A DNA stretch of 20,288 nucleotides from a virus, in IMG/VR virus record IMGVR_UViG_3300024261_000190, positions 1 through 20,288 of that record; one strand, given 5' to 3'. Below the pieces are notes generated by a model that did no database searches, was not told where the DNA came from, and was given only the letters and a program-made list of their open reading frames with translations. Each line of letters begins with the position of its first letter. Position 1 is the stretch's first letter. This document shows positions 65 to 12,486 of the stretch, one piece after another. The position numbers and the translations under genes are program-made.

Positions 65-721
65 TTACGCCCAAGATGGATTTGCGCCTGCACCACCAGA
101 GGTTAGTACTTGTCCAGCAGTTCCTGTAGGTAGAAGAACCCATGCAGAACCATTGTAATACATAATGTCGCCCTGTGCTTGTCCGCTGATAGAAATCTTT
201 TCAGCACTTACAGTACCATTGCCAGGAACACCGATATTAGCAGTGTGGCCCAAATGATAAACAAGAATAGAAACGCCATTTGCTGGAGCAGTAGAGAATG
301 TTAATGTTGTTCCAGAAACAGAATAATCTGCATCAGGTACTTGAGTTACACCATTCAGCATAACCATGATGCTCTGAGCACTTGGAGCAGAAACCGACAT
401 AGTTAAAGGTGTAACACTTGAACCATCACCTGTACCAGTTTGAAAACTAATAGCATCACGCATTGCAACATTAGTTAATTCTTTACCCATGAAAACTACA
501 TAGATATTATCAGTTGCCAATGGAGCAGCAGTAAATGTCAATGTTGTACCGTCTGCTGTATAAGCAGTATCAGGTTCTTGAATAACACCACCAACTGAAA
601 CAATCAGACTAGCAGATGTTGCAACTGCATTGTCCAAAGTAAATACAGTCGTTGAGCTATCACCTGTAAGGTCTTGCTTTTCCAATGCACCGTATTGTAC
701 ATCTCGTCCTAGATAAGCCAT
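65..721 (-). CDS. Putative tail-fibre or virion protein with two 'LNG-TQ-PD-DY' repeats
   Basis: A 218-residue protein with no signal peptide or membrane segment. Two beta-rich repeats are visible, at about residues 18-80 and 97-158. Each starts with a GD(G)SS-type turn, then a hydrophobic strand, then VGGVIQEPDTAY or LNGVTQVPDADY, then GTTLTFxxAP, ending in a strand such as IYVVFMG or ILVYHLG. The C-terminus (about 184-218) has a common phage fibre ending, GDIMYYNGSAW followed by TAGQVLTSGGAGANPSW. The same repeat occurs three times in the gp7-like protein of this window. It is the last gene of the block, just before a terminator. Its start has only a weak ribosome site (AAGGAT). A fibre or fibre-tip role is inferred; no enzymatic motif is visible. 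Confidence 0.75.
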   Translation of the reverse strand: MAYLGRDVQYGALEKQDLTGDSSTTVFTLDNAVATSASLIVSVGGVIQEPDTAYTADGTTLTFTAAPLATDNIYVVFMGKELTNVAMRDAISFQTGTGDGSSVTPLTMSVSAPSAQSIMVMLNGVTQVPDADYSVSGTTLTFSTAPANGVSILVYHLGHTANIGVPGNGTVSAEKISISGQAQGDIMYYNGSAWVLLPTGTAGQVLTSGGAGANPSWA

Positions 722-1750: not shown

Positions 1751-2680
1751 CTATATACCATCTCTTGCTGGAAATGGTGCTCTAATAACAACAATACCAC
1801 TACCTCCAAAACCATTGCCAGGAAAACGTGGAATTCCCTGTCGTGCTCCACCACCACCTTTATTCTGAACACCATTTGTATTTCCTACTGCACTACCTCC
1901 GCCACCGAAGCCAGGAATAGAACTACCGTCTGGTGCTTGTGGTCTTAAATTCACTCCACCACCAGCCCCACCACCAGCATAACCTTCATTAGTACCAGTT
2001 CTATAATCATTTTCTCTTCCATGCCCGCCACTACCTCCAGGGCCTCCACCCTTACAACCACCACATGGAGCACAACCACCAATGGCCCCAGCATTCGTAC
2101 CGGCACTTCCTGCACCACCGCCACCGCCTGTTGCACCCGAACAACCTCCAGAACCACCGCCAGGACTACCGCCATTATGTCCTTGTCCAGAAACACCCTG
2201 TCCACCAGAACCCGATCCAGAACCACCAGAACCAGCACCATTTGGCCCTATTATACTACCAGAACCACCGCCGAAAGCATCTGGCACACCAACATTAGTA
2301 TTACTATCACCTTGTATTCTAAAAACAGTATCACCACCCCTAACTGCTGCTCCAACTCCAGATGAACCCCCCGCACCAATTATTACATCATATACTGCTG
2401 GTTCTAAAGTAATTTGTGTAGCTTCAACCATTCCTCCGGCACCGCCACCGCCACCACCTGCTGAACCACCTCCACCAACAGACATAATATCCATTCTTAT
2501 AGGTCTAGAACCAGTAACTTCAAATACACCTGTTGTAGTATAAGTATGAATTTTAAAATTACCGTCAGGTGTAATAGTTACTGAACCAACAGGATCTACC
2601 TCATTACCTACTATAGTTAGTGTTTCAGGATCTTGTAATCCAACCGTACCAACGTGTCTACCTTGATTTATAAATGCCAT
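1751..2680 (-). CDS. Glycine-rich putative tail-fibre adhesin
   Basis: A 309-residue protein. Residues 1-65 form a beta-rich lead-in ending in FEVTG and MDIMSV. From about 67 to 298 it is dominated by glycine: GGGGSAGGGGGGAGG near 69-83, then PAVYDVIIGAGG, then many GGG blocks, and a closing GFGGSGIVVIR strand. This layout matches the glycine-rich phage adhesin type, in which polyglycine helices pack in layers and the loops between them touch the host receptor, as in T4-family gp38 adhesins. Four cysteines lie in the glycine region, at 180, 203, 206 and 209; three form CAPCGGC, unusual for a phage fibre. The ribosome site AAGGAATGAG precedes ATG. It follows the three fibre paralogues, so a role in host recognition is inferred. 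Confidence 0.75.
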   Translation of the reverse strand: MAFINQGRHVGTVGLQDPETLTIVGNEVDPVGSVTITPDGNFKIHTYTTTGVFEVTGSRPIRMDIMSVGGGGSAGGGGGGAGGMVEATQITLEPAVYDVIIGAGGSSGVGAAVRGGDTVFRIQGDSNTNVGVPDAFGGGSGSIIGPNGAGSGGSGSGSGGQGVSGQGHNGGSPGGGSGGCSGATGGGGGAGSAGTNAGAIGGCAPCGGCKGGGPGGSGGHGRENDYRTGTNEGYAGGGAGGGVNLRPQAPDGSSIPGFGGGGSAVGNTNGVQNKGGGGARQGIPRFPGNGFGGSGIVVIRAPFPARDGI

Positions 2681-2709: not shown

Positions 2710-4404
2710 TTAGAATTCTAAAAATACAATTACGCCAGGTTGCCCATAACCTCCGGGCCTTGCATCGGACTGTGTACCACCACCAGAAGAACAATGATAA
2801 GTGTACGCCACACCAACACTACCACTCATTCCATAACCTGGCCAAAAAGAACCATCGGCACGGCCGGGTAAGATTAGACTCCCACCATCAGCATCATCTC
2901 CATGTAGAGCAGATGCTATATCACCACGAGCTGTGGGATCGTTCGTTGTACCATCGCCTTCTCCCCCAATTCGATTTCCAATATATGTACTGAAACCTCT
3001 TGCGTATGTTGTAAGGTTCATTAATGAACCAGATGCCTGTCCCCCTGTACCAACTCTACAATTTATACTAGTGATATTAGATACATCGATAAAACCCATT
3101 ACTGTTGTACCAGAACCTCGCCCACCAAATCCTGTCGAGTTAGAATTTAATCCTGTATCACCAGCAGCTGTTATAAAATATAGAATTTTTTGAACCCCAC
3201 CTGGCACGGTATATGTTTGTTCAATATTATCCGCAGCGGAGTAAGGGCCAGTTGTTGTATTAAGAGAATGCATTACAGTGATTCCTTGAAAACCACCAGA
3301 ACCTACACCAGAAGCAGCAGCCATAAATGCGAGAACACCATTACCGTTAGTAGATAATACATCTCCGGGCTGAGCATTTGCATCAGAAACATTTAACTCA
3401 GAAATCCCAACAGCATTGTTAGTAATCGCAGAACTGTCAACTGCATCATTAGCTATTTTAGAAGCAGTAATTGCATTATTAGCAATCTTATCACCATTAA
3501 CTGAATTATTAGATATCTTAGAACTGTCAACTGCATTGTCAGCAATCTTGAGATTATCAATTGCACTAGTAGCAATTTTATTACTATCAACTGCACCGTC
3601 AGCAATCTTAGAATTTGTTACTGAATCTGCTGCTAACTTACCTTCAGTAACATTTAAATCTTTAATATGATTTGTTCCAACTGCTCTATTTGCGTCATTT
3701 GTAGCATCGTCTGATAACTTTGTATCTGTTACTGCATTTTCAATAATGATAGCAGAAGAAACAGGCCCTGACAAATCACCACCAATTGTTACACTAGATG
3801 TTACATTAATAAATTCTAAATTACCATTAGCATTTCTTGAAAGTACTTGTCCAGTTGTTCCATCACTAACATCAAGTTCAATAATACCAACTGCATTTTG
3901 AGTAATAATAGCAGAAGAAGCAGTACCAGATAAATCACCACCCAATACTGGGTTAGCATCCATCGGCCCAAAAGAAATACCACCTATTCCATCTGTAATA
4001 AGTACTTCTCCTGGCTGTCCTTCAACCGTATTAAGCTCATTAACTGTAATAGTATTAGGTTTTATTTTTGCATCACTAATAGTACCAGATAAATCACCAC
4101 CAATACTAGTTGATGAAACATCTGCATTATTATTAGAAAAAAGTATATTACCATTCCCATCAACAGTTAAAATTTGTCCAGAAGTTGGGGAATTTATATT
4201 TGAAAGTTTTAACTGTGTTAGTCCAACTTGTCCAACTACATTTGACATATCTTCTCTAGCGAGAGGATGCCCACCCTGAGTAGATTCATCATGCACAACA
4301 ACTGTATCCTTTTCCAAATCAACAGTTATCTCACCCTGTTTTCCGGTGAATACGCTATGGTCGGATGTTGTTCCTCTTCTTATCTGTACTAATTTAGCTG
4401 GCAT
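2710..4404 (-). CDS. Tail-fibre paralogue 3: Mtd-like N-terminus, decapeptide shaft, glycine-rich tip
   Basis: A 564-residue fibre-like protein. Residues 1-55 resemble the N-terminal domain of the phage major tropism determinant (VQIRRGTTSDHSVF, GEITVD, VVVHD, HPLAREDMSNV) and match the next two paralogues. Three copies of a GGDLSG module follow, at about 101, 154 and 207, the first two running into GQVL-type and NGNG-type turns. Residues 249-335 are decapeptide repeats of the type AVDSSKIADN, likely a trimeric shaft. The C-terminus (about 397-564) differs from the other two: YTVPGGVQKILYF, glycine-rich loops, and a closing GQPGVIVFLEF strand, like a glycine-rich receptor-binding domain. An exact late-promoter octamer overlaps the stop codon of the upstream gene and gives a leader of about 20 bases with AAGG. 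Receptor binding is inferred. Confidence 0.8.
   Translation of the reverse strand: MPAKLVQIRRGTTSDHSVFTGKQGEITVDLEKDTVVVHDESTQGGHPLAREDMSNVVGQVGLTQLKLSNINSPTSGQILTVDGNGNILFSNNNADVSSTSIGGDLSGTISDAKIKPNTITVNELNTVEGQPGEVLITDGIGGISFGPMDANPVLGGDLSGTASSAIITQNAVGIIELDVSDGTTGQVLSRNANGNLEFINVTSSVTIGGDLSGPVSSAIIIENAVTDTKLSDDATNDANRAVGTNHIKDLNVTEGKLAADSVTNSKIADGAVDSNKIATSAIDNLKIADNAVDSSKISNNSVNGDKIANNAITASKIANDAVDSSAITNNAVGISELNVSDANAQPGDVLSTNGNGVLAFMAAASGVGSGGFQGITVMHSLNTTTGPYSAADNIEQTYTVPGGVQKILYFITAAGDTGLNSNSTGFGGRGSGTTVMGFIDVSNITSINCRVGTGGQASGSLMNLTTYARGFSTYIGNRIGGEGDGTTNDPTARGDIASALHGDDADGGSLILPGRADGSFWPGYGMSGSVGVAYTYHCSSGGGTQSDARPGGYGQPGVIVFLEF
3391..3660 (-). repeat. Decapeptide (30-base) shaft repeats in the 564-residue fibre
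   Basis: About eight to nine tandem decapeptides at residues 249-338. Each has the form xAVxxSKIAxN, for example AVDSNKIATS, AIDNLKIADN, AVDSSKISNN and AITASKIAND. The period is exactly 10 residues (30 bases), with Lys-Ile at fixed places. The DNA copies have diverged but keep recurrent words such as 'agcaatctta' and 'aactgcat'. Such regular repeats usually form an elongated trimeric fibre shaft. Confidence 0.8.
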
Positions 4405-4429
4405 AATATTTAACCTTATGTTTTTTTAT

Positions 4430-4437
4430 TATTTATA
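4430..4437 (-). promoter_or_regulatory. T4-type late promoter overlapping a stop codon
   Basis: An exact TATAAATA read on the minus strand. Its TAA is the stop codon of the 349-residue fibre gene (GTA TAA ATA). With T4 spacing, transcription starts near 4424 and leaves a leader of about 20 bases containing the ribosome site AAGGTT before the ATG at 4404. Confidence 0.7.
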
Positions 4438-5482
4438 CTCTACATCTTAACGTAAATCTTAACCCTTGTCCGAATGTACCCTCTCCAATTCCTATTTGTG
4501 TAACTCTAAATGTTAACCTATCACCAGACACAAATGTATTATCATTTTTCAATACACCAGAAGTCATGTTTTGTGATCCTGTACCGCTAACAAATGATGG
4601 CTGGGTTGTATATATTGATACTTCATTTTTTTGTACGTCCATCATAATTGGTTGTCCAGCACCAGTAGTAGCAATATAACCTACCTCTCCATCAAATTTC
4701 CCACTTCTTGCCATAATCATTTCACCGTATACTTGTTCTAGTAAATCGGAGGGAATTGTTTCACTATCAAATCCAGCAAGAAAAGATATATCATAAGGAA
4801 GTTCTGTAATTTCAGGGCCTTTTAATGCAGGTAATGTACCGCCTGCGATTAATTTATCAGCAGTAAGTCCTATAATCTTTTCATCTGTTATAGTAAGATC
4901 AGCAATTTTATCATTATTGATACTGTTATTAATAATATTATTTTGTCCAATACTATTTACTTGCATTTTAGCATTACTGATTACATCATCAGATATTATT
5001 ACATCTCCGATTGTGCCGTTGACTTCCCCACTTATAGCTATTTGTGTTTGTGGATTTGTAAAAAATAATACACCATTACCATTAGTAGTAAGTATATCAC
5101 CAGCTAATGAATCAGAAACATTTAATTCAGAAAGTCCAACAGTATTAGGATTTATTTGTGCATCACCAATAGTACCAGATAAATCACCACCAATAGAAAA
5201 TACAGCACTATCGGGTAAATTTACAAAACTCAAAGTCTCACCATTATCTTTTTGCAATACTTGTCCTGGCGTACCAGCATTAGAAATATCTAATTGAGAT
5301 AGACCAATATTATTAGAAACATTGCTCATATCTTGTCTTGCTAGAGGAAATCCACCAGCAGTGCTACCATCATGCACTACTATTGTATCTTTATCTCCAT
5401 CAATAGTTATCTCACCGTTAGCACCTATAAACGCACCATGCTCTACAGTAGTACCTCTTCGTATTTGAACTTGTTTAGCCAT
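4433..5482 (-). CDS. Tail-fibre paralogue 2: Mtd-like N-terminus with PYDISFLAG C-terminal domain
   Basis: A 349-residue fibre-like protein, second of three tandem paralogues. Residues 1-55 carry the Mtd-like domain (QVQIRRGTTVEHGAF, GEITIDGDKDTIVVHD, FPLARQDMSNV). A GGDLSG module lies at about 98-141, with a degenerate copy from about 150. A short shaft of decapeptide-like repeats (NSINNDKIAD, LTITDEKIIG) spans about 174-215. The C-terminal domain (228-349) starts LPYDISFLAGFDSE, passes YGEMIMARSG, and ends LTFRVTQIG then GLRFTLRCRV. It is clearly the same domain as in the 383-residue neighbour. The ribosome site AGGAAG is 5-6 bases before ATG. The Mtd-like label rests on pattern memory. Role inferred: fibre or baseplate-attached receptor-binding protein. 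Confidence 0.8.
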   Translation of the reverse strand: MAKQVQIRRGTTVEHGAFIGANGEITIDGDKDTIVVHDGSTAGGFPLARQDMSNVSNNIGLSQLDISNAGTPGQVLQKDNGETLSFVNLPDSAVFSIGGDLSGTIGDAQINPNTVGLSELNVSDSLAGDILTTNGNGVLFFTNPQTQIAISGEVNGTIGDVIISDDVISNAKMQVNSIGQNNIINNSINNDKIADLTITDEKIIGLTADKLIAGGTLPALKGPEITELPYDISFLAGFDSETIPSDLLEQVYGEMIMARSGKFDGEVGYIATTGAGQPIMMDVQKNEVSIYTTQPSFVSGTGSQNMTSGVLKNDNTFVSGDRLTFRVTQIGIGEGTFGQGLRFTLRCRV

Positions 5483-5494
5483 ATTGTCTTCCTA

Positions 5495-5502
5495 TTTTTA
5501 TA
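5495..5502 (-). promoter_or_regulatory. Degenerate late-promoter octamer overlapping a stop codon
   Basis: TATAAAAA on the minus strand, one mismatch from TATAAATA. Its TAA is the stop of the 383-residue fibre gene, mirroring the exact promoter one gene further downstream. With T4 spacing the start would leave only about 7 bases before the ATG and would exclude the AGGAAG ribosome site. It may therefore be a decayed copy that no longer drives this gene. Confidence 0.3.
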
Positions 5503-6649
5503 CTCTACACTTCAACATAAATCTCACCCCAAATCCAAAAGTTGGATCTGAGCCGATTTGTGTAACTCTAAAAGTTAATTTATCACCAGAATTAAATCCA
5601 TTTTGTCCAGTAGTATTTAAAATTCCGTCATTGAATACTCCAGTACCACCACTAAATGTTGGTTTAGTAGAATAAATACTATTGGAACTTGATTGTCCTG
5701 CAAGTATTAATTGTACGTCAAGTTGGACTGATGAACCCTCAGACGGGGTTTCTATTGATCCAATTCCACCCTCAAATGCTCCTGTTCTCCCCATGATCAT
5801 TTCTGCATATGATTGTACCAATAATTCTACCGGCAGGGTTTCTGAATCCCATCCAGCAAGAAAAGATATATCATAAGGTAAATTCTTTATATTAACACCA
5901 TCAACATTCTGAAAAGTACCCGTAATTTTACTAGCATCTAAAGTATCAATTTTATCAGAAGTAATAGCAGCATCAACAATGTTTTCAGTTTGTACAGAAT
6001 CATCAGCTAGTTTACTATTGTCGATTATGTCTGCTTCTAATTTTGCTCTTGTTACAGTCAAGTTAACAATGTTTTCAGTTTGTACAGCATTATCAGCTAG
6101 TTTACTATTGTCAACAGCATCAGGTTCTAATTTATCTCTTGTTACATTTAAGTTAGCAATTTTAGAAGTAATTATATGTGAATTAACAATGTTTTCAGTT
6201 TGTACAGCATTATCAGCTAGTTTACTATTGTCAACAGCATCAGGTTCTAATTTTATTCTTGTTACATTAAAATCAGTAAGTTCGGTTGTACCAACAACTT
6301 GTGGAATTATTTGTGCATTACCAATAGTACCTGATAAATCACCACTAATAATAGAACCAGAAACATCAGGTGAACTTGAAAATGCTATAGTACCTATTCC
6401 GTCTGTTGCTATTACCTGTCCTGGCGTTCCATCAGATAGTTTTAATTGGATAATACCAACAACATTAGCAACATTGGTCATATCACTTCTTGCAAGAGGA
6501 TAACCTGCTGGGTCGGTTTCTAAAAATACTGTTCCATCGTGTACCCTAATTGTATTTTCAGTAAGATCAACAGTTATCTCACCTTGCTGTCCATCGAATC
6601 CTTTATGTTGCTCGGTAGTGCCTCTTCTAGTTTGTACGATTTTAGCCAT
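5498..6649 (-). CDS. Tail-fibre paralogue 1: Mtd-like N-terminus, long decapeptide shaft, PYDISFLAG C-terminal domain
   Basis: A 383-residue fibre-like protein, first of the three paralogues to be transcribed. Residues 1-60 are the Mtd-like domain (IVQTRRGTTEQHKGF, GEITVD, IRVHDG, YPLARSDMTNV), with a small insertion after VHDG compared with the others. One GDLSG module (about 101-125) leads into an extended shaft at 128-245 made of three-decapeptide units such as NVTRDKLEPD, AVDNSKLADN, AVQTENIVNL. The C-terminal domain (256-383) starts LPYDISFLAGWDSE and ends LTFRVTQIG and RFMLKCRV, shared with the 349-residue paralogue. The start overlaps the end of the 68-residue gene by 8 bases (AATGGCTAA). 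The ribosome site AGGAAAA lies inside that gene, which suggests coupled translation; an exact late promoter also lies inside it. Confidence 0.8.
   Translation of the reverse strand: MAKIVQTRRGTTEQHKGFDGQQGEITVDLTENTIRVHDGTVFLETDPAGYPLARSDMTNVANVVGIIQLKLSDGTPGQVIATDGIGTIAFSSSPDVSGSIISGDLSGTIGNAQIIPQVVGTTELTDFNVTRIKLEPDAVDNSKLADNAVQTENIVNSHIITSKIANLNVTRDKLEPDAVDNSKLADNAVQTENIVNLTVTRAKLEADIIDNSKLADDSVQTENIVDAAITSDKIDTLDASKITGTFQNVDGVNIKNLPYDISFLAGWDSETLPVELLVQSYAEMIMGRTGAFEGGIGSIETPSEGSSVQLDVQLILAGQSSSNSIYSTKPTFSGGTGVFNDGILNTTGQNGFNSGDKLTFRVTQIGSDPTFGFGVRFMLKCRV
5915..6268 (-). repeat. Long direct repeats in the fibre shaft (90- and 120-base spacing)
   Basis: Three copies of a unit that begins near 5975, 6065 and 6185. 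The last two are identical over 71 bases (6063-6133 and 6183-6253) at a spacing of exactly 120 bases. The first is more diverged and lies 90 bases away. All spacings are multiples of 30 bases, that is, whole decapeptides: one unit has an extra decapeptide (HIITSKIANL). Near-perfect repeats of this length allow shaft lengthening or shortening by recombination without a frameshift. Confidence 0.85.
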
Positions 6650-6848
6650 TTTGTTTTCCTAATAAAGTCTTTATCATTTCTTTAAGTTCTGATATGTCTC
6701 TTTTCATATTATTTATATCATCAATTTCTTCCTGTTTTTTCTTTACGGAAAGCTTATAATTTTCTAATGCTTTTCTATCTGTATTAAGTACTGCTTTAGA
6801 ATCTATATCCCTAACATATCCTGTATCATTTATTTTTATACTTTTCAT
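6642..6848 (-). CDS. Small coiled-coil protein between virion protein and fibre genes
   Basis: A 68-residue protein: MKSIKIND, then GYVRDIDSKAVLNTDRKALE, then a Lys/Glu-rich helix (residues about 24-64, SVKKKQEEIDDI to LKEMIKTLLG) with spaced hydrophobic residues typical of a coiled coil. I recall similar small proteins (YVRD..S.AVLNTD..AL) beside structural genes in marine T4-like phages; their function is unknown to me. It begins 4 bases after the TAA of the 1877-residue gene with no clear ribosome site, so translation probably continues from that gene. Its last 8 bases overlap the start of the first fibre gene. It may act in fibre assembly or attachment, inferred from position and the coiled coil only. 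Confidence 0.75.
   Translation of the reverse strand: MKSIKINDTGYVRDIDSKAVLNTDRKALENYKLSVKKKQEEIDDINNMKRDISELKEMIKTLLGKQNG
6710..6717 (-). promoter_or_regulatory. T4-type late promoter inside the coiled-coil gene
   Basis: An exact TATAAATA on the minus strand, inside the 68-residue gene (over its Asp-Ile-Asn codons). With T4 spacing, transcription would start near 6704, giving a leader of about 55 bases for the fibre gene that starts at 6649. It could raise fibre expression independently of the very long upstream gene. Confidence 0.6.
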
Positions 6849-6852
6849 AATA

Positions 6853-9800
6853 TTATGCTAATGCTATAGCTCTTAGATCTTTTATTAATGGAACTTTTGT
6901 CGTCTTTGGTGAAATCATAACAATCTTAATAGCAAAAGTTTTAAAACTATCATATGTCACATTATTTGAATCAACATAATTTGTATTCATTCCAACAGGG
7001 GAATATTCAAGTTCCAAATATTCTTGTTCATCAACAGATGAAGAAACACTTTTAATATTTGATATTTCCTTCATCAACGTCCAAGGCCTATCATCGAATA
7101 GAGCAGTATCAAACTGTGACAATACTTTATAATAAACAAAAATACTAGCATTTGAAGGGCGGTTAGCAGTAATAAATACCTCCAAATCCGTAGCATCAAA
7201 TCCGTCTTTTAGTGTTACTCTTCTTGTAAGATATCTTGCTGTAGCATCACCACCAGATGTAATCTGATCTGCATCATGTGTATTGTTGATAATATTTTCA
7301 ACAGTAATAACACTATTTCTAGCAGTATCAATAATAGGACTTATAAATTTACTAGATGATGATAATTTAGCTCTTGATTGGAAATCTACTCTATTTTGAG
7401 TAGACGTAATATGTTTTTGATCATTCAATAAAAAATTAGTATTCTGAATAATAGGATTATAATCAATATCAAACGTATCTGAACCAGCATCTCTTAACTT
7501 AACACCCCATGCAATATTAGTTTTATTAATTCTAACTTCTTGTGGGACAATTTGAATAATATCAGCTTTAATGGTAGATGAAGTATTATTATTATTAAAA
7601 ACAGCATTAGCAGGATTACCTGTAGCAAACTGTGCAATATTAATATTAAATGTTAAATCTTGATTTTGTTCTGGTGTCCATGTTGAAGCATTCTGTGATT
7701 TAAAGAATACACCAGCATATGGTTGTTCAGAAATTTTCCTATCCGTACCAACTTGATTCTCACCCATCTCAGCAATAAATGCTTCATACTTTAAACTATT
7801 ACTCAAGACAACAATTGCATACTCGCCAGGTTGTAAATAAACCAAAGATGGAAATGTAAACTTAGTTGCAACTGAAGCATCGTTGCTAACATCAATGTCA
7901 GCAGGGAACATAGTAACATCAGAAAATGGAACAATCGTCTGAGCAGGATAACCATTCAAAGTATCCCGAATCTGTAATGTTACTGGAAGTCCGTCTTCAT
8001 CTTTTGTCTTGAAGAACAATTCAACATCTGTTAAGAATACTCCATCTGGATACAATGCAGCGTCAACCAAAAATGTTTCAGCCAATGGATCAACCCAACC
8101 AACGACATTAACACGATTGAAAGTATTTGTAGTAGTTCTAAATTCTGTAGCACTACCTTGTGCAAAAGTTTGTATTCTTGGAACTCTAGTGGATACAACA
8201 ACATTCTCTCTTGTCTGCAATAATCCCTGTGCTTGATAAACAACTTCTGCATAAGTTGAAGCTGTAATTAGATCACCAGACTCGTTATCTGCTAATAAAA
8301 ATTGTCTCTCTCCAGTTCTAAATCTAAGAGTATCAGAATTTGGAATATTAAATGTCAAGTTACTAATAGAACCAGCATCATCGGTATTAATAGCAGTGCC
8401 CGGAACAGTTTCCCCATCAGGAATACAAAATTCAGAAACTTTTTCTCCATCAAAGAAAGCATAAACCCGTGTGTTAGGTTTCATACCTGTTACAGAAACT
8501 ACTAAAGGCCTTGGACGAATAAAAGGAATAACAGATACATCTACAACCCTATCACCAATGCTATTTCTTACAGCATCAGAACCCGTAATCTCATTCCGAA
8601 TACCCGTTCTGGATTGCAATGTAGTTCGTTCAACTGTCTGTGATACCGTAATAGCCCTACCAGATCTACCACCCCTTGATGTTAAAACTCTCTCCCGTCC
8701 TGTACCAAATGTTTGCCAATCATTAAACTGTGTACCAAATGACAATCCTACTAAACTCTGCCATGCATCATTCTCACCTTGGAGGTTTACAATAACCTCT
8801 GGATTATTATTAGTATCAACCCAATTATCATTTGGTGGTGTTAGGTTAACTGTACCAATCCATGCCAATACAGCAAATGGATTTACATTAATTGCTTTAC
8901 TTGCAATTTGTTGTGCTACAAAAATAGTAGAATCATATGGTAAAGTAATACAATCACCTGTCTTCTCAACACCAGTAGATGCTGTTCCATCATAAGATAG
9001 ATCTGTAATATTAGAAGAAAATCTAGGACGTAATATCTTTTCATCAAAATCAATTGAACATTTATAATCATCACTTAAAACATTACCTACACTATGACCA
9101 TTAAAACCATCTACTAAAAATCCATTTTTAAATCTATCTAATCCAGACGAATCTTTAATGACAAGTGCTTCTGCATCTTTTTCTAACAATGATAATGATG
9201 TGAAATATTCAACATTAGCTATTCTTTTTTCCAACTTACCAATATCTCTCATAGTATATCTTCTATTTTCAATATACTCAGCTCTTACATCTTTAGCATT
9301 AAATGTATAAGCAGGAATTTGAAGTGTATAAAGATTCATTGTACCATCCAACCTAGTTGGTGTTACTGGTATGAGAGATGAAACACCCTTATTACTACCA
9401 AACTTTCTTTCTTTACTTAAATATACTGTATCAGTTCTTGGAATATAATAACTAAAATCAGCTTCCCAATCTGTATTAGGAATTGGTAACTCAATATTTT
9501 CTATTAAATTAGAATCACTATCCGAGCGACGTGGCCTAAAATCAATACAATCTCTTAATTCAACTTCAGAACCCGTTACTGGACTTGTATATTTTGGAAT
9601 ATCACCAAATCCTATAGAACCAGTATAAGAATCAACAGAAAGATATCCTGTTCCTGTATGTGTGAAAAAATCAAACACAACAGTTATTTTTCCAGAAGGA
9701 GCAGTTCCACCCGTTTTTAGTTTAATGCTTCCGTAATCATATAAATTATCTCGTTGGCCTGAATCAATATCATATTGTGATAAAATATTCTTACTCGGAA

Positions 9801-12486
9801 AATTATTATCTATATTAGATACACCACTAGATACTTTAGTAAAATTTGATGTTGCACCAGTAACATTCTCTGCAACAAAAGTTCCAGATACAGGAACATA
9901 AGTAACAGAAGTAGTTCCACCAGCACCAAGAACAACAGTCCCTTTAGCACCAGAGGTTTGTCCTGTAATAGTTTCACCTGGCGTTAAAGTATCTGATGTA
10001 TTAGCAACTGTAAGAGTAGGAAGTACTGGATCTGTATTAGTATCACCAGAATCATATATTGCTTTTACTTTCCAGACATCAGATTTTTCTAAAGAATGAG
10101 ATACAGTAGATAAATTGCTTGGTGTTTGAAATGTTAATGTACTATTATTTGTTAGATTTTTTACCTTCTCTTGTTTACCACTAATATTTACATTAGAAAT
10201 AATATCACCTGTAAAACTTCCAGAAACATTAGCATTAAGAGTTGCAGTAGTATGTTGTGGGCCATTAACTGTTATGGAAGCTCCTGCACCATCAAACCTA
10301 ACAATACTACCAATAGGTAATCCAGAAGTACCAGAATTATTAACAACTACTAAATAATTTTCTCTAGCAACTGAAGGTTCTAAAGATCCAGATCCAACAA
10401 AAGTTTCTGAAGCACCAGCAGTAGCAATGTTTGCAATACCATTATTAAATGGCTGTGATTCAGTAACTTTCTTAACCCTATAATTTGTATCTATAACATT
10501 ATTAAGGCCACGAATTGTTTGAATAGTATCTTGTGGTAATTTAAATACAAGACTATTACCTGTTGTTTCAAGAAGTAAAGAGTCACCACTAGCAGAAGCA
10601 CCAACTCTACCAGTATCATCAATATCTGCTTTTGCTCTAATGGTAACAGTAGCAGCACTGTCATCCTCTGTATAAGCAATAGAATTAACTTTTCCAAATG
10701 TCTCACTTGACATTTTTATATCATAAAGATATAAGTTAAATATCCTATCTGCGCCAGCAGTTGAAGAAGAAAAATCAATACTCCTTACCCTAGCTTCTCC
10801 AATTTTTGTATTTGCATAATTATTTGGTTGAATAGTAGTATTGTTATGTAAATCAATTACCTGATGTTTTGAAATATCAAACATCCCGTTCAAGTCTTTC
10901 ACAACGACATAGTTGCCGTATTGCATAAGTCTATCAAAACCACTTACATTTACAATTTCCCTCGCCTTATCTAATTTAATATCTTGTGATACTAATGTTT
11001 CAAATTCATAACCACCAATAAATGCTTTGCCAGGATCTAATCGTACAATAAATTTTGTAGCATCATCGGGATCATCCTTGAGTTGAACATTAAATGACCT
11101 TACTGTATAACTTCCCGATTCATCAAATGTTCTTCGGGCAAGAGTATTCTCTAAAACAGAATATACAGGAACTTGAATATTCTGTTCCTTTATTCCTTTA
11201 TTAACTCTTAACATCTCATAAAAATCTGCATCGTCTGTCGAATCTAAATTTTTCTTTGTAAGTGTTAAAGAAATTTGTAATCTGTCTGCGCCCGGAGCTG
11301 CAAAGTTTGAAGAACCCTGTGAGTTATCAAGTAGGGTAGCATTATCACCAGAATTTAATATTTTTTCTAAAGCAGAAAGTCCAACTTTATATGATGGATT
11401 ATTAAAGTATTTTTCTAGTATTAATGTTTGCTCTGATACTTTAATAAAATTACCATTAATATAAAACACACCTTCAGATATTGAAACAGAACTCCCCTTA
11501 CCTACGGCAGTAGAAAAAACACTATCTGCTGTAGCATTTACACCACCAGCTGGTGCATCTGCAATAGATATTGCTGGAACAGCAGTATATCCTGAACCCT
11601 GATTAATAATATTAATTGATGTTACAATACCACCACTTATAGTAGAACTTGCTGTTGCATTTGTTCCACCTATGGGTGCATTAGCAATAGTAACTATTGG
11701 TGATTCTGTATATCCCGAACCACCTTTAGTAATTGTTACACTTTGAATACTAGTTGGAGTAGAATCAACTAGTTCAGCAGAAATAGATAAATCAGATGAA
11801 TAAATTCTTTCACCTGCTAAAAATTGTGATTTAGTTTCTCTAGTAGCAGTAGCAACTGCACCTGCTCCATTACCACCGATAAATGATACAGATGGATTAC
11901 CAGTATACCCTGTTCCTCTATTAGTAACATTAACTGCAATAACCTTTCCACTACTAATAATTGCTCGAGCCTCAGCACCATTACCATTACCACCAGTTAT
12001 AGCAACAGTAGGAGCAACAGTAAAACCATTACCTTGATTTTGTGGATCTACAGTAATACCCTGAACACTATTGGTAACAGAACCACCCGTAATATACTTA
12101 ACATATACGGTATCTGGATCACCAGTATTAGAATCCGGTTTTGAATAACCTAGAATAATAGCTCTTGTTCCCGTCTGAGAACCAATTATAGTTTTTCCAG
12201 CAAAACCAGATACATCAATATTTACTCCATTATATTGTGGTTTTAACTTAACATATTCATAATCCAAATTTAAAACAAACTCACCACCCGATACCTTACT
12301 ACCATTCTTAAAAATATGATCACCAAATTTCTTTATTTGATTTTTAAGAATACTTTGTTGCGTAGTTAATTCTCTCGCTTGAACGGGAAATGATGGCTTA
12401 TATAAAACTTGATGAAAGTTATTATTATCATCAAAGTCGTCAAAATAAGGATTCTGATTTGTATTTATCGTAATGTTATTAGACAT
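6853..12486 (-). CDS. Giant virion structural protein with DUF4815-type N-terminus
   Basis: An 1877-residue protein, the largest in the window. Residues about 12-70 (NPYFDDFDDNNNFHQVLYKP, PVQARELTTQQSILKNQI, FGDHIF) match the DUF4815 pattern of marine-phage structural proteins. The pattern resumes near 336 (EGVFYINGNFIKV, YKVGLSALE, DRLQISLTLTKK, LARRTFDESGSY, LDPGKAFIGGYEFET). Between them, at about 135-330, are four 'GSGYT..P.V.I' repeats. Further blocks known to me from such proteins lie near 1332 (PFIRPRPLVVSVTG, KPNTRVYAFFDG) and from about 1465 (DPLAETFLV, GVFLTDVELFFKTKD, LPVTLQIRDTLNGYP, GVFFKSQNASTWT). It lies right after gp8, where T4 has gp9 to gp12, so it may be a baseplate-periphery or fibre-attachment protein; that is inference. 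The ribosome site AAAGGTAATT precedes ATG, with a near-match late promoter just upstream. Confidence 0.85.
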   Translation of the reverse strand: MSNNITINTNQNPYFDDFDDNNNFHQVLYKPSFPVQARELTTQQSILKNQIKKFGDHIFKNGSKVSGGEFVLNLDYEYVKLKPQYNGVNIDVSGFAGKTIIGSQTGTRAIILGYSKPDSNTGDPDTVYVKYITGGSVTNSVQGITVDPQNQGNGFTVAPTVAITGGNGNGAEARAIISSGKVIAVNVTNRGTGYTGNPSVSFIGGNGAGAVATATRETKSQFLAGERIYSSDLSISAELVDSTPTSIQSVTITKGGSGYTESPIVTIANAPIGGTNATASSTISGGIVTSINIINQGSGYTAVPAISIADAPAGGVNATADSVFSTAVGKGSSVSISEGVFYINGNFIKVSEQTLILEKYFNNPSYKVGLSALEKILNSGDNATLLDNSQGSSNFAAPGADRLQISLTLTKKNLDSTDDADFYEMLRVNKGIKEQNIQVPVYSVLENTLARRTFDESGSYTVRSFNVQLKDDPDDATKFIVRLDPGKAFIGGYEFETLVSQDIKLDKAREIVNVSGFDRLMQYGNYVVVKDLNGMFDISKHQVIDLHNNTTIQPNNYANTKIGEARVRSIDFSSSTAGADRIFNLYLYDIKMSSETFGKVNSIAYTEDDSAATVTIRAKADIDDTGRVGASASGDSLLLETTGNSLVFKLPQDTIQTIRGLNNVIDTNYRVKKVTESQPFNNGIANIATAGASETFVGSGSLEPSVARENYLVVVNNSGTSGLPIGSIVRFDGAGASITVNGPQHTTATLNANVSGSFTGDIISNVNISGKQEKVKNLTNNSTLTFQTPSNLSTVSHSLEKSDVWKVKAIYDSGDTNTDPVLPTLTVANTSDTLTPGETITGQTSGAKGTVVLGAGGTTSVTYVPVSGTFVAENVTGATSNFTKVSSGVSNIDNNFPSKNILSQYDIDSGQRDNLYDYGSIKLKTGGTAPSGKITVVFDFFTHTGTGYLSVDSYTGSIGFGDIPKYTSPVTGSEVELRDCIDFRPRRSDSDSNLIENIELPIPNTDWEADFSYYIPRTDTVYLSKERKFGSNKGVSSLIPVTPTRLDGTMNLYTLQIPAYTFNAKDVRAEYIENRRYTMRDIGKLEKRIANVEYFTSLSLLEKDAEALVIKDSSGLDRFKNGFLVDGFNGHSVGNVLSDDYKCSIDFDEKILRPRFSSNITDLSYDGTASTGVEKTGDCITLPYDSTIFVAQQIASKAINVNPFAVLAWIGTVNLTPPNDNWVDTNNNPEVIVNLQGENDAWQSLVGLSFGTQFNDWQTFGTGRERVLTSRGGRSGRAITVSQTVERTTLQSRTGIRNEITGSDAVRNSIGDRVVDVSVIPFIRPRPLVVSVTGMKPNTRVYAFFDGEKVSEFCIPDGETVPGTAINTDDAGSISNLTFNIPNSDTLRFRTGERQFLLADNESGDLITASTYAEVVYQAQGLLQTRENVVVSTRVPRIQTFAQGSATEFRTTTNTFNRVNVVGWVDPLAETFLVDAALYPDGVFLTDVELFFKTKDEDGLPVTLQIRDTLNGYPAQTIVPFSDVTMFPADIDVSNDASVATKFTFPSLVYLQPGEYAIVVLSNSLKYEAFIAEMGENQVGTDRKISEQPYAGVFFKSQNASTWTPEQNQDLTFNINIAQFATGNPANAVFNNNNTSSTIKADIIQIVPQEVRINKTNIAWGVKLRDAGSDTFDIDYNPIIQNTNFLLNDQKHITSTQNRVDFQSRAKLSSSSKFISPIIDTARNSVITVENIINNTHDADQITSGGDATARYLTRRVTLKDGFDATDLEVFITANRPSNASIFVYYKVLSQFDTALFDDRPWTLMKEISNIKSVSSSVDEQEYLELEYSPVGMNTNYVDSNNVTYDSFKTFAIKIVMISPKTTKVPLIKDLRAIALA
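11497..12084 (-). repeat. GSGY-type protein repeats inserted in the DUF4815 region
   Basis: Four copies of a module of about 40-60 residues: GNGFTVAPTVAI, GTGYTGNPSVSF, GSGYTESPIVTI and GSGYTAVPAISI, each followed by a Gly/Asn/Ala-rich loop (for example GGTNATA) and a V.SINI-type strand. They lie between two recognisable halves of the DUF4815-type domain and so appear inserted. The same module is found in the gp7-like and, in weaker form, the gp8-like protein of this window. Confidence 0.75.

What the first reader, a model, noticed from the sequence alone, without database searches (positions are those of the whole stretch)
2710..6649. Three tandem fibre paralogues with an exchanged tip domain
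Three consecutive genes share an Mtd-like N-terminus and GGDLSG modules. The first two share the same C-terminal domain, including 28 identical bases (4771-4798 and 5851-5878). The third has a different, glycine-rich C-terminus. A shared attachment end plus different tips suggests a set of alternative or co-assembled receptor-binding fibres, produced by duplication followed by domain exchange.
Basis: partly seen in the sequence, partly recalled or inferred. Interest (0 to 1): 0.65.

Follow-up and report, generated by a model that had tools for sequence, protein, structure and literature searches.

The report
Phage tail-fibre trio, swappable tips
A marine T4-like virus of bacteria carries three side-by-side tail-fibre genes that start with the same attachment piece but do not all end in the same tip, and comparison with related viruses shows that these tips are exchanged over evolution; this is a clear example of a known way in which such viruses change what they can grip.

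Summary
Three complete minus-strand genes, A (6649-5498), B (5482-4433) and C (4404-2710), each begin with the Pfam Mtd_N domain, above its cut-off. A and B end in one shared domain; C ends in another. The 28-base identity is exact but lies on a conserved peptide with biased codons.

Relatives from public viral contigs refine the reading. A, B and C are old, separately inherited lines rather than recent duplicates. All three are under purifying selection in the pairs tested. A and B nearly always keep the same tip, which folds like a jelly roll. C is the variable slot, with at least four tip types among relatives. Two exchanges are visible in DNA: A against L013 (similarity ends near residue 225; L013 has a collar-type tip) and C against L011 (ends near residue 375). 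The shared tip also occurs on unrelated stems and as a stand-alone gene.

C has a conserved T4-type late-promoter motif at -33. I found no inversion system, so 'co-expressed set' fits better than 'alternative fibres'. The locus matches the published 'host recognition cluster' of pelagimyophages. It is a good new example of a known kind. Attachment site, stoichiometry and receptors are untested.

The parts
5498..6649 (-). Fibre gene A (383 aa): Mtd_N anchor, 30-residue stem repeats, jelly-roll tip
6530..6637 (-). Mtd_N domain of A (residues 5-40)
5915..6271 (-). Stem repeats of A, about 90-base units
5501..5878 (-). Tip domain of A (residues 258-383), homologous to the B tip; replaced by a collar-type tip in relative L013
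4433..5482 (-). Fibre gene B (349 aa): Mtd_N anchor, stem, jelly-roll tip
5360..5470 (-). Mtd_N domain of B (residues 5-41)
4436..4801 (-). Tip domain of B; AlphaFold2 model of window 4436-4813, mean pLDDT 83.7
4430..4437 (-). TATAAATA, T4-type late-promoter motif 33 bases before the C start; same place in L011, L017, L018, L020 and L021
2710..4404 (-). Fibre gene C (564 aa): Mtd_N anchor, three GGDLSG modules, 10-residue stem repeats, variable tip
4288..4389 (-). Mtd_N domain of C (residues 6-39)
3376..3618 (-). Stem repeats of C, 30-base (10-residue) units
2713..3309 (-). Tip of C (199 aa), related to the L017 C tip; weak Gly_rich_2 match below cut-off
6642..6848 (-). 68-aa gene overlapping the start of A by 8 bases; directly upstream of A in every relative that holds both (PHROG 473, virion structural protein)
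6853..12486 (-). 1877-aa gene in the slot annotated VrlC in HTVC008M, probable baseplate component upstream of the fibres

Best explanation
A, B and C are three co-expressed receptor-binding fibres of a T4-like marine myovirus. Each probably forms a homotrimer whose Mtd-type N-terminus docks on the baseplate periphery (inferred), with a repeat stem and a C-terminal binding head. A and B are a conserved pair whose jelly-roll heads have diverged to 56% identity. C is the variable slot, whose head is replaced by recombination between phages at the stem/tip boundary, and it probably has its own late promoter. Shown: shared anchor, old A/B/C lines, tip exchange in A and C, purifying selection, conserved promoter motif. 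Inferred: trimerisation, docking partner, receptor binding, simultaneous display on one virion.
For: Mtd_N in all three. Synteny after the VrlC-slot and 68-aa genes in relatives and in HTVC008M. N-terminal tree: A clade 100/98, B 93/90, C 83/84. DNA identity of WIN_A against L013_A is mostly 70-87% up to about residue 225, then near 40-45%; WIN_C against L011_C is mostly 60-80% at both ends of the shared stem, near 40-50% beyond residue 375. C tips differ between lineages. The A/B tip occurs on unrelated stems and alone. A set of 118 distinct Mtd_N proteins falls into 45 C-terminal clusters. Tip model pLDDT 83.7, best match the C-terminal part of the Agrobacterium phage 7-7-1 tail fibre, Z 10.1. 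dN/dS 0.09-0.56 wherever nonsynonymous changes occur. TATAAATA at -33/-30 before C in four lineages. Published host recognition cluster after VrlC (PMC7029224).
Against: No virion or structural data. Support for B and C as clades is moderate. The tip tree does not separate A tips from B tips firmly. The C tip could not be modelled (pLDDT 41.6). TATAAATA is not enriched over the whole window (5 seen, 4.7 expected), and its first five bases overlap B's last codons.
Confidence: 0.72

Rival explanations
1. A and B are not separate fibres but subunits of one mixed fibre or of adjacent co-assembled trimers, which would explain why both keep the same tip while C changes; C would be the only real host-range determinant.
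For: A and B are adjacent and conserved together in most relatives. Within-genome A-B tip similarity is slightly above cross-genome similarity (rank 3 of 120 permutations).
Against: The N-termini show nearly the same small effect (rank 6 of 120) and B-C N-termini too (rank 2), so it is not special to tips. L013 has exchanged the A tip, and L023 appears to have a single A/B-type copy. No direct evidence of mixing.
Confidence: 0.2
2. A recent within-genome duplication and gene conversion made the three genes, as the 28-base identity might suggest.
For: 28-base exact match between A and B; within-genome matches at the same motif in L011 and L018.
Against: A, B and C N-terminal lines are older than the split of the relatives; joining L020/L021 A and B as sisters is rejected on N-termini (p 0.0001). 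The run lies on a conserved peptide. Tip DNA identity A-B in the window is only 63%.
Confidence: 0.06
3. The genes are alternative fibres, one chosen per virion through inversion or another switch, or diversified by a retroelement as in Bordetella phage BPP-1 Mtd.
For: Same N-terminal domain as Mtd, the classic diversified protein.
Against: No long inverted repeats and no recombinase or reverse transcriptase seen among the window's genes. The B tip models as a jelly roll, not as a C-type lectin fold. The window is a fragment, so a remote element cannot be excluded.
Confidence: 0.04

Closest known systems
Host recognition cluster of pelagimyophages (HTVC008M and relatives; PMC7029224)
   Same: Same slot directly after VrlC, tail-fibre genes, high variability, 'major tropism determinant domains' reported there; HTVC008M has the same gene order and one Mtd_N protein
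   Different: That study did not, in the passages read, describe three Mtd_N paralogues, conserved A/B tips or a variable third slot; HTVC008M has one Mtd_N gene (1068 aa)
Mtd of Bordetella phage BPP-1
   Same: Homologous N-terminal 54 residues
   Different: Different stems and tips; no C-type lectin domain detected and no retroelement seen in the window
Agrobacterium phage 7-7-1 tail fibre (PDB 9rkv)
   Same: Its residues 473-581 are the best structural match to the B tip, Z 10.1, rmsd 2.4, 104 residues
   Different: 9% sequence identity; the jelly-roll fold is common, so relation is not shown
Alteromonas phages A5 and V22 shared host recognition modules (PMC10579305)
   Same: Horizontal exchange of fibre parts between phages
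   Different: Whole module with chaperone exchanged between families; here single tips are exchanged within one gene slot

Membership tests
Mtd_N-bearing phage fibre proteins | Pfam PF18454 at the N-terminus above cut-off | tested here: met
   All three genes
BPP-1 Mtd-type diversified receptor-binding protein | C-type lectin fold at the C-terminus | tested here: inconclusive
   The B tip models as a jelly roll and no such fold is listed, no Pfam match; the C tip could not be modelled
BPP-1 Mtd-type diversified receptor-binding protein | Retroelement (reverse transcriptase, template repeat) nearby | tested here: inconclusive
   None seen in the window, but the window is a 20-kb fragment
Pelagimyophage host recognition cluster | Tail-fibre genes directly downstream of VrlC | tested here: met
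   Order as in HTVC008M: VrlC slot, short virion structural gene, fibre genes
Pelagimyophage host recognition cluster | Cluster ends at neck gene gp14 | not testable with these tools
   Window ends within the cluster
T4-type late-transcribed gene | NATAAATA upstream at a conserved position | tested here: met
   C at -33/-30 in four lineages; gp8 at about -45; motif as in PMC2984593. Promoter activity not tested
Invertible alternative tail-fibre system | Inverted repeats around alternative tips plus an invertase | tested here: not met
   Only short imperfect inverted repeats; no recombinase in the window; a remote recombinase cannot be excluded
TNF/C1q-type jelly-roll head | Fold | tested here: inconclusive
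   Z up to 8.6 to TNF-family ligands and 7.2 to C1q domains, but many unrelated jelly rolls score alike

The most novel reading that the evidence does not exclude
The trio is a division of labour: A and B form a constant adhesin pair, while C is a separately promoted cassette through which this virus lineage swaps specificity without touching the constant fibres. This would be a defined 'constant plus variable' fibre layout in marine T4-like viruses.
Probability: 0.3. Interest if true: 0.5.

Novelty: new member of a known kind. Interest (0 to 1): 0.36.

Why it matters
Host range of marine T4-like viruses is probably set in this poorly annotated cluster, where most genes are called hypothetical. 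The comparison gives names to three slots, marks stem/tip boundaries, and shows which slot changes and which stays. That makes simple tests possible in cultured relatives, and it gives annotators a better label than 'hypothetical' or 'baseplate wedge initiator'.

Tried and rejected
DNA search of the fibre region in the phage collection found no match. A scan for close relatives of the C tip in viral contigs and in the phage collection found none. The C tip model was poor (pLDDT 41.6), so it was not used for a fold search. Homology of the C tip to the glycine-rich gene D was suggested by uncorrected BLAST (E 2.6e-8), but it vanished with composition correction and in profile comparison (probability 6%); I do not claim it. 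Gene conversion between A and B tips: hint only, not distinguishable from N-termini. The AU test does not reject B tips as one clade apart from A tips (p 0.41). Sigma-70-like promoters are no more frequent than in shuffles. Bacterial genome contigs gave only distant, mixed relatives, so the host stays unknown.

Full report
What is there. The window is a whole 20,288-base viral record from a T4-like marine myovirus: gp25, gp6, a 1109-aa baseplate gene, gp8, a 1877-aa gene in the VrlC slot and a 68-aa gene precede the fibres, all on the minus strand. The best-scoring gp6 match among phage records is Pelagibacter phage HTVC008M at 39% identity, and HTVC008M has the same gene order. The three genes of the finding follow at once: A (6649-5498), B (5482-4433) and C (4404-2710), with gaps of 15 and 28 bases. 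A glycine-rich gene D and further fibre-type genes come next.

Shared anchor. Mtd_N is found in A, B and C above Pfam's cut-off, and a profile of A/B relatives matches the crystal structures of Bordetella Mtd over residues 1-54. The A-B match is full length, while the C matches stop before the tip.

Relatives. Scans of viral contigs gave about a dozen distinct relatives of this region. A and B stand side by side in L011, L014/L015, L017, L018, L020, L021 and L026; C follows B in all of these except L014/L015, where it lies about 4.3 kb further on. L023-L025 have one A/B-type copy beside the 68-aa gene; L027 and L120 have a second one further away. The N-terminal tree separates A (100/98), B (93/90) and C (83/84), and forcing L020/L021 A and B together is rejected (p 0.0001). 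The three lines thus predate the split of these phages.

Tip exchange. Sliding comparison places the break: WIN_A and L013_A share mostly 70-87% of DNA up to about residue 225, then near 40-45%. L013 carries a collar-type tip (Pfam Collar below its cut-off) followed by a 2OG-Fe(II) oxygenase gene. WIN_C and L011_C share their anchor and much of the stem, then drop near residue 375. C tips are of at least four kinds among relatives. The window's C tip is related to that of L017 (36% over 81 residues, E 8e-8 for a single comparison). One tip type, ending in GKKYKINLTEIE or a close variant, sits on the C stem in L020/L021 and on a G-type stem in L014.

The A/B tip. Searching with the tip alignment finds it on other Mtd_N stems, on stems without Mtd_N, and as a stand-alone 138-140-aa gene, in L171 directly after an Mtd_N gene that lacks it. 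Among 118 distinct Mtd_N proteins in the fetched loci, single-linkage clustering of the last 110 residues gives 45 clusters; short tip-less proteins form some of these, so 45 is not a count of binding heads. AlphaFold2 gives a jelly roll for the B tip (pLDDT 83.7). The best structural match is residues 473-581 of the Agrobacterium phage 7-7-1 tail fibre (Z 10.1), with TNF-family and viral jelly rolls close behind. This supports a head-like fold but shows no function.

The 28-base identity. It is exact. It encodes PYDISFLAG, the conserved start of the tip, and the chance of nine agreeing codons is about 0.0016, before allowing for the choice of site. L011 and L018 have 23- and 27-base runs at the same motif. 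Within-genome A-B tip similarity ranks 3 of 120 permutations, but N-termini rank 6 and B-C N-termini 2, so I claim no tip-specific conversion.

Expression and integrity. TATAAATA lies 33 bases before C in the window and at -33/-30 in L011, L017, L018, L020 and L021, while A-B junctions lack it. The 28 bases between the B stop and the C start are identical in the window and L017. In L014, where C has moved, the B junction no longer has the motif (one case). NATAAATA is the documented late promoter of T4-like cyanophages (PMC2984593). The motif is not enriched over the whole window and partly overlaps B's stop, so this rests on positional conservation. A TATAAATA also lies 68 bases before A, inside the 68-aa gene, where coding constraint could explain it. 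No terminator-like site lies between the genes on their strand (those on this strand fall inside C's coding sequence or after G). In three phage pairs dN/dS is 0.09-0.56 wherever nonsynonymous changes occur, which speaks against decay.

Mechanism. The best account is three fibres displayed together, with A and B constant and C variable. Trimerisation, docking and binding are inferred from the Mtd family and fold type, not shown. No switch was found, so 'alternative' use is unlikely.

Place in the known. A published study of pelagimyophages named the region after VrlC the host recognition cluster and listed major tropism determinant domains among its proteins (PMC7029224). Modular fibre exchange is well known (for example PMC10579305). 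The value here is in the detail: three conserved slots, one of them hypervariable at the tip. I rate it a new member of a known kind.

Noticed in passing
L171:1417-2925 and 2947-3363 (also L170, L174, L199): The A/B-type tip occurs as a short separate gene; in L171 it directly follows an Mtd_N gene lacking that tip, and in L199 a 190-aa tip gene follows a tip-less Mtd_N gene, which suggests split fibres assembled from two polypeptides.
   Followed up: partly
L013:11226-11798: A 2OG-Fe(II) oxygenase gene (PF13640, PF13661 above cut-off) directly follows the A gene that has a collar-type tip; HTVC008M has four genes annotated as 2OG-Fe(II) oxygenases after its fibre genes. Tip hydroxylation is a possible link.
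   Followed up: no
window 65-721 (minus strand): Fibre-type gene G ends right after a stem-like GTAGQVLTSGGAGANPSWA sequence, while its relatives in L014 run on into tips; a terminator-like hairpin follows at 50-27.
   Followed up: no
window 6642-6848 (minus strand): The 68-aa gene overlaps the start of A by 8 bases and sits directly before A in all relatives holding both; a candidate adaptor for the fibre anchors.
   Followed up: partly
L032:4440-4500: Where C has moved downstream in L014/L032, it is preceded by a near-perfect palindrome followed by a T run, terminator-like, and keeps the AAGGTTAAAT ribosome-site sequence.
   Followed up: no
window 1751-2680 (minus strand): Gene D is 32% glycine with a weak Gly_rich_2 match just below cut-off and is kept beside the fibre genes in many relatives.
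   Followed up: partly
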